Shown here: piece after piece, positions 20,850-23,126 of the stretch
Layout of the letters: the number at the start of each line of letters is the position of its first letter
Numbering within the stretch: the first letter of the stretch is position 1
DNA from: Cryptosporangium phraense
GTDB lineage: Bacteria; Actinomycetota; Actinomycetes; Mycobacteriales; Cryptosporangiaceae
NCBI RefSeq assembly: GCF_006912135.1
Contig: NZ_VIRS01000014.1
Coordinates: 124,001 to 188,000 of the forward strand
DNA: 64,000 bases
Direction of reading: 5' to 3'
The notes under the pieces: model-generated
What the model was told of the DNA's origin: nothing
What the model saw: only the letters and a program-made list of their open reading frames with translations
Databases searched by the model: none
Translations under genes and position numbers: made by a program

Positions 20850-21461
20850 TCAGCGCGAGTAGAACTCGACGACCAGCTGCTCGTTGCAGATCACCGGGAC
20901 CTCGCTGCGCTCCGGGTCGCGCAGCACCCGGGCGGTCAGCGAGCTCATCGACACGTCGAGGTACGGCGCCGACGGCCCGGCCCCGGCGTTCGCGCCCGAG
21001 GCCGCGACCACGAACGGCGTCAGCTGGCGGCTGCGCTCGTGCACGGCCACGACGTCGCCCGGCTCCAGCCGGTACGACGGGCGGTCGACCCGCAGGCCGT
21101 TCACCGTGATGTGACGATGGGTGACGAATTGCCGGGCCTGGTAGATCGTCTTCGCGAAGCCCGCGCGCAGCACGGTCGCGTCGAGCCGGCGCTCGAGCAG
21201 CGACACGAACACCTCGCCGGTCTTGCCGGGCTTCTTCACGGCCTCGTCGAACACCCGGCGGAGCTGCTTCTCCCCGATGTCGTACTGGTAGCGCAGACGC
21301 TGCTTCTCCCGCAGCCGAAGCGAGTAGTCGCTCTGCTGGCGGCGACGCCGACCGTGGTCACCCGGCGGGTAGGGGCGCTTCTCGAAGTACGGGACGCTCT
21401 TCGGAGTCAGCGGAATCCCCAACGCTCGCGACAGGCGCACCTTCGGTCGGGACTTGTTCAT
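20850..21461 (-). CDS. rpsD: 30S ribosomal protein S4, cysteine-free form
   Basis: The 203-residue protein is ribosomal protein S4, which binds 16S rRNA early in 30S assembly. It starts [20 protein letters not shown], as in the stand-alone S4 of Streptomyces rather than the rpoA-operon type. The [19 protein letters not shown] motif and the S4 RNA-binding domain ([34 protein letters not shown]) are intact. None of the zinc-binding N-terminal cysteines is present, so this is a C-minus form that needs no zinc. The ATG at 21461 follows AAGGA. It lies alone, away from other ribosomal genes, behind an IdeR-like iron box, which raises the possibility that it is a second, conditionally expressed S4. 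Confidence 0.95.
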
Positions 21462-21472
21462 TGAAAATCCTT

Positions 21473-21511
21473 CTGGGTTAGGCTTCACTAACTAAGGCCA
21501 GCCTAACCGAA
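21473..21511. promoter_or_regulatory. Two adjacent IdeR/DtxR-like iron boxes in the rpsD/DUF2470 promoter
   Basis: Compared with the 19-bp iron-box consensus TTAGGTTAGGCTAACCTAA, the plus-strand site at 21473-21491 matches at 14 of 19 positions and the minus-strand site at 21493-21511 at 15 of 19. Both contain an exact GGTTAGGCT. Together they form a 9-bp inverted repeat with a 15-base spacer. One site lies 12 bases before the rpsD start, the other 13 bases before the DUF2470 start, so an iron-loaded IdeR/DtxR repressor could control both genes. Match counts were made by eye. Confidence 0.65.
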
Positions 21512-21523
21512 TTTGGAGGCGTG

Positions 21524-22330
21524 ATGGAACCGACCCCGGCGGAGATCGCTCGTACGCTGGCGGCCGGCCACCTACCGGCCCGGGTCCGCACCGAGTGCGG
21601 CTCCGAGCGCACGCCCGTCACCGAGTTCGCGGTGACCCACGTGACCGACCGGATGGGCCGCGTCCTCCTGCTCCTGGCCGAAGACAGCCCGGTCGACCGC
21701 GCGCTCCGCCCGGTCGCCGCCGACGGCGACGCGGTCGCCCAGCTGCTGATCGCCGACCGGCAGCCGGTTCCCGGCGGCCCGTGGCACGGCCGGATCACGA
21801 TGTCCGGCTGGGCGACGCGCCTGGCCGGCGTCTCGTCGCACCGCGCGGCGATGGACTTCGCCGAGGTGAGCCCGGTCGGCGAGCTGCTCGACGTCGGCCG
21901 GGGCAGCGTCCTCTACCGGCTCGACCTGGCCGAGATCGAGTGGGCCACGCCCGGCTACGACGCTCCGGACACCGATCCGGACGGCCTCCGCCGAGTCGAC
22001 GTCGACGTCGACGCCTTCCTGGACGCCGAGCCCGACCTGTTCGGGGCCGAGGAGCAGAAGCTGCTGGCCGACCTGGCCGACCACCACGAGGACCTGCTGT
22101 CCGAGCTGTGCGCGCAGGCCCGGGAGACCGTGGTTCCCGGCGCCCGCAACGCCCGGGCGCTCCGCCTCGACCGCTACGGCCTGACGCTGGGCGTCGACGT
22201 GGACGACGAGGAGCGCTGGATCCGGGCCGGGTTCCGGCACCCCATCTCCGACCTGCGTGAACTGGCCGAGATCTTCCACCTGCTGGCCTGCTGCCGCTGC
22301 CGCCCGGAATCGCACCAGCACGCGCACTGA
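21524..22330 (+). CDS. DUF2470 domain protein, haem/iron utilisation type
   Basis: The 268-residue protein contains a DUF2470 domain at its C-terminus: LLADLADHHEDLLSELCAQA, then ARALRLDRYGLTLGVDVDDEERWIRAGF near residues 205-245. Upstream is a split-barrel-like region (VTHVTDRMGRVLLLLAEDSP ... VAQLLIADRQPVPGG), as in the HugZ/pyridoxamine-oxidase-like proteins that often carry DUF2470 and act in haem iron utilisation. The usual haem-ligand histidine cannot be assigned with confidence. A cysteine pair and histidines end the protein (LLACCRCRPESHQHAH), which could bind metal. GGAGG lies four bases before the ATG; a GTG one codon earlier is possible. The iron boxes upstream support an iron-related role. 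Confidence 0.8.
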   Translation: MEPTPAEIARTLAAGHLPARVRTECGSERTPVTEFAVTHVTDRMGRVLLLLAEDSPVDRALRPVAADGDAVAQLLIADRQPVPGGPWHGRITMSGWATRLAGVSSHRAAMDFAEVSPVGELLDVGRGSVLYRLDLAEIEWATPGYDAPDTDPDGLRRVDVDVDAFLDAEPDLFGAEEQKLLADLADHHEDLLSELCAQARETVVPGARNARALRLDRYGLTLGVDVDDEERWIRAGFRHPISDLRELAEIFHLLACCRCRPESHQHAH

Positions 22331-22406
22331 TTGTTCACAGAATGTCCACGCCAGTCCGGGCGTGAGTTCCTTACGCCCGAAGCCGTCGCCGCAGTACACC
22401 TCCGGC

Positions 22407-23126
22407 ATGCCTTCACCTGTTGTCGTTTCAGCGGGATATTCGGTGGTCCTCGCCACCGAGCCGGCGGAAGTCCGCGCAGCCCAGGAGCTGCGCTACCAGG
22501 TATTCGGGCTCGAGCTCGGTGCTGAGCTCGAGGGGGTCGGCATCGACGCCGACCGGTTCGATTCGCTCTGCGACCACCTGCTGATCCGCGACGACCGCAC
22601 CGGCGCGTGCGTCGGCACGTATCGGATGTTGCCGCCCGGGCGCAGCGCCGAGCTCTACTCGGACGGTGAGTTCCGGCTCGACCGGCTCGCGCACCTGCGC
22701 GGGGAACTGGTCGAGACCGGGCGCTCGTGCGTCCACCCCGACCACCGATCGGGCGCGGTGATCGGCCTGATGTGGGCGGGGATCGCGCGCTACATGCACC
22801 TGGCCGGGCACCAGTGGCTGGCCGGCTGCGCGTCGGTGCCGCTCTTCGACGGCGGCGACGCCGCCGCCGCGACCTGGGCGGTGATCCGGGCCAAGCACCT
22901 CGCGCCGGACTCCCTCCGGGCCGAGCCGCTGCACCCGTGGCCGGTGCGCGAGGGCGCGCCGAAGGCGTCGATGATCCCGCCGTTGCTGCGCGGCTACCTC
23001 CGGCTCGGGGCGAAGGTCTGCGGCCCGCCCGCGCACGACCCGGCGTTCGGCACCGCCGACTTCCTGGTGCTGCTCTCGATGGCCGACGTCGACCAGCGCT
23101 ATCTCCGACGGTTCCTCGGCGCATGA
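22407..23126 (+). CDS. GNAT-fold N-acyltransferase, OlsB/haemolysin-like
   Basis: A 239-residue protein of the Acetyltransf_5 family. Its members include OlsB, which transfers a 3-hydroxyacyl chain from ACP to ornithine to make lyso-ornithine lipid. Family features: RAAQELRYQVFGLELGAEL near residue 24, the DSLCDHLLIRD segment near 52, CVGTYRMLPPG near 71, and FRLDRLAHLRGELVETGRSCVHPDHRSG at about 91-118, containing the E-x-GRSCVHP motif. The stop overlaps the acyltransferase that follows in an ATGA. This pairing is the genetic signature of ornithine lipid synthesis, so I infer a lyso-aminolipid synthase; the amino acid accepted is not provable here. Confidence 0.8.
   Translation: MPSPVVVSAGYSVVLATEPAEVRAAQELRYQVFGLELGAELEGVGIDADRFDSLCDHLLIRDDRTGACVGTYRMLPPGRSAELYSDGEFRLDRLAHLRGELVETGRSCVHPDHRSGAVIGLMWAGIARYMHLAGHQWLAGCASVPLFDGGDAAAATWAVIRAKHLAPDSLRAEPLHPWPVREGAPKASMIPPLLRGYLRLGAKVCGPPAHDPAFGTADFLVLLSMADVDQRYLRRFLGA

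What the first reader, a model, noticed from the sequence alone, without database searches (positions are those of the whole stretch)
21473..21511. Iron boxes between a zinc-free ribosomal protein S4 and a DUF2470 gene
Two adjacent sites match the IdeR/DtxR consensus at 14/19 and 15/19 positions, on opposite strands, each 12-13 bases from a start codon. One gene is a stand-alone S4 without cysteines; the other is of a haem/iron-use type. Zinc-controlled spare ribosomal proteins are known (Zur regulon), but iron control of an S4 would be new. If this is a second S4, iron starvation might switch ribosome composition. Match counts and promoter position are seen; the regulator and effect are inferred.
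Basis: partly seen in the sequence, partly recalled or inferred. Interest (0 to 1): 0.72.

Follow-up and report, generated by a model that had tools for sequence, protein, structure and literature searches.

The report
Iron-controlled spare ribosomal protein S4
An actinobacterium carries, besides its normal ribosomal protein S4, whose cysteine motif holds an iron-sulphur cluster in the ribosome of another bacterium, a second S4 without that motif behind an apparent iron-starvation switch, so it may rebuild its ribosomes to save iron.

Summary
Two adjacent iron boxes (14/19, 15/19) lie between divergent rpsD and DUF2470 genes; 0.035 such sites are expected per window. A second S4, next to rpoA, has the CXXC...CXXXXC motif that binds [4Fe-4S] in Thermus uS4 (PMC6555806). 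The window S4 lacks those cysteines (it has one elsewhere). Among 100 genomes with this S4 form and a counted S4 number, boxes of at least 14/19 stand in 49 of 51 two-S4 genomes. Where no DUF2470 neighbour was found, the box is present in 5 of 6 two-S4 but 1 of 29 one-S4 genomes, suggesting that it serves rpsD too. In Planobispora a second S4 rose with iron transporters when iron was limiting (PMC8269224). An earlier Zur-site search at such S4 copies found none (PMC3087516). Against: 20 of 20 one-S4 genomes with DUF2470 keep the box; phylogeny-corrected pairs are too few for significance; no DtxR-type C-terminal domain was found in this genome or in G458, which holds a key comparison locus. 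Best reading: an iron-sparing S4 switch, untested at the bench.

The parts
20850..21461 (-). spare rpsD: 203-aa ribosomal protein uS4 lacking the N-terminal CXXC...CXXXXC metal site (C- form)
   Evidence: NF003717 236.8 bits, TIGR01017 217.1 bits, both over cut-off; Ribosomal_S4 and S4 Pfam domains; one Cys only
21468..21474 (-). Shine-Dalgarno-like AGAAGGA of spare rpsD, overlapping box 1 by two bases
   Evidence: read from sequence
21473..21491 (+). iron box 1 (rpsD side), 14/19 to the IdeR/DtxR consensus
   Evidence: conserved in 3 of 3 same-genus genomes read
21493..21511 (+). iron box 2 (DUF2470 side), 15/19 to the IdeR/DtxR consensus
21515..21519 (+). Shine-Dalgarno-like GGAGG of the DUF2470 gene
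   Evidence: read from sequence
21524..22330 (+). DUF2470 gene, 268 aa, predicted haem-binding split-barrel protein
   Evidence: PF10615 24.6 bits against a cut-off of 22; AlphaFold model pLDDT 90.3; best fold match MSMEG_6519 haem-binding protein, E 2.3e-14

Best explanation
The pair of iron boxes is an IdeR/DmdR-type operator that represses both divergent genes when iron is plentiful. When iron is short, the haem-binding DUF2470 protein and a spare S4 are made. The housekeeping S4 beside rpoA carries the four-cysteine motif that holds a [4Fe-4S] cluster in Thermus uS4. The spare S4 has no such site, so ribosomes made under iron starvation could be assembled without spending an Fe-S cluster on every 30S subunit. 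Shown here: the boxes, their conservation, the second four-Cys S4, and boxes at two-S4 loci without a DUF2470 neighbour. Inferred: binding by IdeR, induction of rpsD, the cluster in the actinobacterial S4, and exchange in ribosomes.
For: Boxes beyond chance, in a genome-wide set lying mostly beside siderophore and iron-uptake families. Second S4 with CRRC...CESPKC next to rpoA. Box of 14/19 or more in 49 of 51 two-S4 genomes. Six boxed loci have no DUF2470 neighbour (L103, L107, L208, L209, L274, L277) and five of these genomes have two S4 genes; at L103 a tRNA gene and at L208 and L277 a same-strand frame lies upstream, with no divergent frame next to the box among those listed. Zur-like 15-mers in 51 two-S4 upstream regions score as in shuffles, and Chen et al. 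2009 found no Zur sites at such S4 copies (PMC3087516, section 8 read). Fe4S4 in Thermus uS4 confirmed by long-wavelength X-ray (PMC6555806, passages). In Planobispora rosea the one ribosomal-protein gene with the opposite trend is a second S4, 45% identical to the core one, in the expression cluster of most iron and phosphate transport genes, with iron shown to limit growth (PMC8269224, passages). Twelve spare S4 proteins of Streptomyces (three of them assigned to it by group code only) are 90-95% identical to a sole S4 of another genome, so probably ribosome-competent.
Against: 20 of 20 one-S4 genomes with a divergent DUF2470 keep the box, so an iron box can stand before an only S4; there repression of rpsD must be partial, bypassed or absent. 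On the tree the box follows DUF2470 (5.4 agreeing, 0.0 opposing, 2.6 undecided pairs; median p 0.06) more than S4 number (2.3, 0.1, 2.6; median p 0.5); among DUF2470-less rows only 3 pairs exist (1.8, 0.0, 1.2), and among rows with DUF2470 S4 number makes no difference. Two-S4 locus L200 has no box. PF02742 found no DtxR-type regulator in the own draft nor in G458, the genome of L103; 10 of 12 genomes had one, the three same-genus ones included. The main text of a study of the S. coelicolor DmdR1 network does not contain SCO1505 (rpsD, recalled) or 'ribosomal protein' (PMC12161575, term search). In Planobispora phosphate was limiting too, and its promoter was not read. Fe-S in an actinobacterial S4 is not shown.
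Confidence: 0.57

Rival explanations
1. The boxes serve only the DUF2470 haem gene; rpsD is a bystander with its own, iron-independent transcription.
For: Rv3839, a DUF2470 gene, is induced by iron limitation in an IdeR-dependent way (PMC13258150, passages); a DmdR1-like motif was reported at a DUF2470 gene of S. griseus (PMC8914203, passage). 64 of 65 genomes with a divergent DUF2470 have a box of 14/19 or more, one-S4 genomes in 20 of 20; the box follows DUF2470 best on the tree.
Against: Without a DUF2470 neighbour the box is present at 5 of 6 two-S4 loci and absent at 28 of 29 one-S4 loci; at L103, L208 and L277 no divergent frame adjoins the box. The window has two boxes, one close to each gene. 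Opposite expression of a second S4 in Planobispora.
Confidence: 0.27
2. The spare S4 is a zinc-starvation (Zur-type) paralogue like other C- ribosomal proteins.
For: C- S4 forms were classed as zinc-free paralogues; other C- paralogues are Zur-controlled (PMC3087516, section 8). The window itself has the best 15-mer of the set, 11/15, where 0.2 such are expected over the 51 regions.
Against: That 15-mer lies over the Shine-Dalgarno stretch and differs in the three same-genus genomes. The other 50 of 51 regions score 6-10, as shuffles do (recalled consensus). No Zur sites at S4 copies in PMC3087516.
Confidence: 0.05
3. The spare S4 is no longer a ribosomal protein but a neofunctionalised duplicate, as proposed for Planobispora rosea.
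For: 45% identity to the core S4 and opposite expression there (PMC8269224); the window S4 is at most 68% identical to any sole S4 in the set.
Against: Streptomyces spare copies are 90-95% identical to sole S4 proteins of other genomes; full-length S4 equivalog models match the window protein.
Confidence: 0.1

Closest known systems
Zur-controlled C- ribosomal protein paralogues (S14, S18, L28, L31, L33 and others; PMC3087516, passages)
   Same: a metal-site-free spare copy of a ribosomal protein placed under a metal-sensing repressor
   Different: iron boxes instead of Zur sites; the protein is uS4, whose full site holds [4Fe-4S] in Thermus; no conserved Zur-like site found
C+/C- S4 pairs of Chen et al. 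2009 (PMC3087516), incl. Salinispora and Frankia EAN1pec
   Same: a four-Cys S4 plus a C-(IV) S4 in one actinobacterial genome
   Different: that work found no Zur site at the C- S4; the word iron has 0 occurrences in its main text
IdeR/DtxR/DmdR regulons
   Same: 19-bp palindrome near siderophore, uptake and DUF2470 genes
   Different: an S4 gene as a target was not met in the passages read here
Second S4 of Planobispora rosea, EV45_RS15600 (PMC8269224)
   Same: spare S4 that rises together with iron-transport genes
   Different: the authors proposed neofunctionalisation; the passages seen name no iron box, and its promoter was not available here
MSMEG_6519 / At3g03890 haem-binding proteins
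   Same: fold of the divergent gene product
   Different: 14-23% identity in the top 13 matches; haem binding not tested

Membership tests
IdeR/DtxR iron-box operator | 19-bp palindrome close to the consensus, beyond chance | tested here: met
   14/19 and 15/19; 0.035 expected per window at 14 or more
IdeR/DtxR iron-box operator | same motif at iron-uptake genes of the genome | tested here: met
   5 of 7 other places beside named siderophore or iron-uptake families
IdeR/DtxR iron-box operator | cognate regulator in the genome | tested here: inconclusive
   none in this draft by PF02742, only weak PF01325 hits (best 28.1 bits); present in 3 of 3 same-genus genomes, 10 of 12 searched
IdeR/DtxR iron-box operator | bound by the regulator and iron-responsive | not testable with these tools
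   needs gel shift and transcript assay
C- uS4 ribosomal protein | full-length S4 lacking the four metal-site cysteines | tested here: met
   no CXXC in the first 40 residues of 159 C- proteins, the window's included
C+/C- uS4 pair | C+ S4 elsewhere in the genome, in the rpoA operon | tested here: met
   L001:1495-2121 with CXXC...CXXXXC, rpoA downstream
Zur-controlled C- paralogue | conserved Zur site in the promoter | tested here: not met
   51 two-S4 upstream regions score like shuffles; the window's own 11/15 match is not conserved in its genus (recalled consensus)
Fe-S containing uS4 | C+ S4 of this genome binds [4Fe-4S] | not testable with these tools
   motif met; among bacteria shown for Thermus (PMC6555806, PMC11791143, passages)
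DUF2470 haem-binding proteins | DUF2470 domain and split-barrel fold | tested here: met
DUF2470 haem-binding proteins | binds haem | not testable with these tools
   fold only

The most novel reading that the evidence does not exclude
Many actinobacteria carry an iron-sparing ribosome switch: under iron starvation an IdeR-repressed, cluster-free S4 replaces the [4Fe-4S] S4 in new 30S subunits, the iron counterpart of the Zur-controlled zinc switch. In some lineages the cluster-free S4 is now the only S4, and where DUF2470 is gone as well the box is almost always absent.
Probability: 0.43. Interest if true: 0.92.

Novelty: new variant of a known kind. Interest (0 to 1): 0.8.

Why it matters
Zinc-controlled spare ribosomal proteins are known; an iron-controlled S4 was not met in my ten searches of open-licence papers (capped listings). 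If true, it ties ribosome composition to the iron budget, gives a use for the little-understood Fe-S site of uS4, names a regulator for the C- S4 copies for which Chen et al. 2009 found no Zur sites, and reinterprets the odd second S4 of Planobispora. It is testable with ordinary transcript and ribosome proteomics.

Tried and rejected
Zur control, tested with a recalled consensus, was not supported. 'Only S4 in the genome' was rejected. Chance match was rejected. A pure DUF2470 operator is kept as the main rival. The small divergent ORFs at L107 and L274 had no Pfam hit at E 0.1. PF02742 and PF01325 did not reveal the regulator in this draft. A family search around G150 held one genome. PMC13061897 was seen in a listing only. 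One search used an off-by-one S4 frame; its S4 rows were discarded and redone.

Limits of the counts. The 31 of 80 named loci whose genomes were counted were picked with box status known, so the DUF2470-less table is a case-control count, uncorrected for kinship. The 50 class genomes are a hand-picked spread of the 120 matched. Upstream regions of 110 of the 120 were obtained (own, L068-L096, L099-L178); 10 were not fetched. 'DUF2470 neighbour' means a divergent frame matching my own profile at E below 1e-20 within the fetched stretch; DUF2470 elsewhere in those genomes was not sought. The profile reaches beyond Pfam: L099 (family f30) counts as DUF2470 but its frame had no Pfam hit; four such f30 genomes are among the 45. 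The threshold matters little: at 13, two-S4 5 of 6 and one-S4 4 of 29 (p 0.002); at 15, 4 of 6 and 1 of 29 (p 0.001). That the second S4 of class and named two-S4 genomes is the four-Cys form is inferred from Pfam scores, except where read (33 of 34 rpoA-type S4 read have the motif; the 34th, L040, is itself a C- form).

On the required re-check the missing regulator in G458 and the DmdR1-network paper were added; odds were lowered slightly for that (0.6 to 0.57; novel case 0.45 to 0.43; DUF2470-only rival raised from 0.25 to 0.27).

Full report
What is there. The intergenic stretch 21462-21523 separates rpsD (minus, 20850-21461) from a DUF2470 gene (plus, 21524-22330) and contains two adjacent 19-bp palindromes, 21473-21491 (14/19) and 21493-21511 (15/19). 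They are the only sites of 14 or more in the window; 0.035 are expected. In the draft genome the motif with up to three mismatches occurs at 8 separate places, control 0. At five of the seven other places a tested neighbour is a siderophore or iron-uptake family (Peripla_BP_2, lysine/ornithine monooxygenase, FecCD, SIP, SIP); at one it is a class-III aminotransferase; at one it had no Pfam hit. In the three same-genus genomes both boxes are nearly unchanged.

The S4 is a spare. PF00163 finds two S4 genes. The other lies between rpsK and rpoA and has CRRC...CESPKC, the CXXC-CXXXXC pattern (pattern as in PMC10450194, passages). The window S4 scores as a full S4 but lacks these cysteines. In Thermus this site holds a [4Fe-4S] cluster: confirmed by long-wavelength diffraction in PMC6555806 (passages) and listed among the few ribosomal Fe/S clusters shown in PMC11791143 (passages). 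So the housekeeping S4 may be an iron user and the spare an iron-free substitute; that step is inference for this organism.

Conservation. In the order sample 18 C- S4 loci were fetched. Fourteen have a box of 15 or more (one of them, L053 in G004, with no second S4), one has 13 with an apparent one-base deletion (L051), and three (genus g39, one S4 each) have none. In the class sample 120 of 344 genomes have this S4 at E 1e-56 or better; 110 of the 120 upstream regions were obtained. Eighty named loci came from one capped scan, many Streptomyces, some Actinomadura and Geodermatophilus. Two separate boxes side by side were seen clearly in the window's genus; elsewhere there is usually one.

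Whose box is it? S4 genes were counted in 100 genomes (own, 18 order, 50 class, 31 named) and box of 14/19 or more tabulated by S4 number and divergent DUF2470: two S4 with DUF2470, 44 of 45; two S4 without, 5 of 6; one S4 with DUF2470, 20 of 20; one S4 without, 1 of 29. The one in the last class (L274) is a metagenome bin in which a second S4 may be missing. Fisher for the DUF2470-less rows gives p = 1e-4, uncorrected for kinship. On a tree of the S4 proteins the independent pairs seldom oppose this (2.3 agree, 0.1 oppose, 2.6 undecided on average) but are too few for significance, and DUF2470 follows the box better (5.4, 0.0, 2.6). The telling loci are the boxed ones without a DUF2470 neighbour: L103 (tRNA-Met upstream on the same strand), L208 and L277 (same-strand frame upstream), L209 (nearest divergent frame about 170 bases beyond the box), L107 and L274 (small unknown divergent ORF). 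The pattern fits an operator serving both genes. A caveat: PF02742 finds no DtxR-type regulator in G458, the metagenome-derived genome of L103.

Independent data. In Planobispora rosea 56 of 64 ribosomal protein genes changed during fermentation and almost all fell together. The only exception was a second S4, EV45_RS15600, which peaked at 39 h in the cluster that holds most iron and phosphate transport genes; supplying either nutrient raised biomass (PMC8269224, passages). The authors suggested a non-ribosomal duplicate. Chen et al. 2009 searched 26 genomes with several S4 genes, Salinispora included, for Zur sites and found none near the S4 copies (PMC3087516, section 8 read). My Zur scan agrees, apart from an unconserved 11/15 match in the window. 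The main text of a DmdR1-network study in S. coelicolor contains neither SCO1505 nor 'ribosomal protein' (PMC12161575, term search).

The partner. The DUF2470 protein model (pLDDT 90.3) matches the haem-binding MSMEG_6519 (E 2.3e-14) and plant glutamyl-tRNA-reductase-binding proteins. The DUF2470 gene Rv3839 is induced by low iron in an IdeR-dependent way (PMC13258150, passages), and a DmdR1-like motif was reported at a DUF2470 gene in S. griseus (PMC8914203, passage).

Limits. Twenty of twenty one-S4 genomes with DUF2470 keep the box, including the complete Streptomyces lavendulae chromosome (L216). There full repression of rpsD would presumably be lethal, so another promoter or weak repression must exist, or the box acts on DUF2470 alone. 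The regulator is not found in this draft genome. Nothing here measures binding, transcripts or ribosome content. Iron control of an S4 gene was not met in ten capped searches of open-licence texts, most of whose papers were seen as listings only.

Noticed in passing
whole genome G000: No DtxR-family C-terminal domain (PF02742) was found in this draft, although 3 of 3 same-genus genomes have one; perhaps an assembly gap.
   Followed up: partly
L107 and L274, upstream of the C- S4: A small divergent ORF of unknown family, sharing a WPNDEPDAVG stretch, sits across the iron box in place of DUF2470.
   Followed up: partly
L117, L120, L121, L122 (one S4 counted); L144, L166 (not counted): Family f29 loci without a DUF2470 neighbour keep a weaker palindrome (12-14/19) starting 50-63 bases before rpsD, with flanking arms that look complementary by eye.
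   Followed up: no
L216 and other one-S4 Streptomyces: The only S4 gene found stands directly behind an iron box.
   Followed up: partly
window 22257-23126: GNAT-domain gene next to DUF2470; OlsB-type ornithine N-acyltransferase models match below their cut-off. The next frame looks like a PlsC-type acyltransferase by eye.
   Followed up: no
literature, Myxococcus xanthus: Two S4 paralogues with opposite expression in development (PMC9548883, passage); a possible non-actinobacterial parallel.
   Followed up: no
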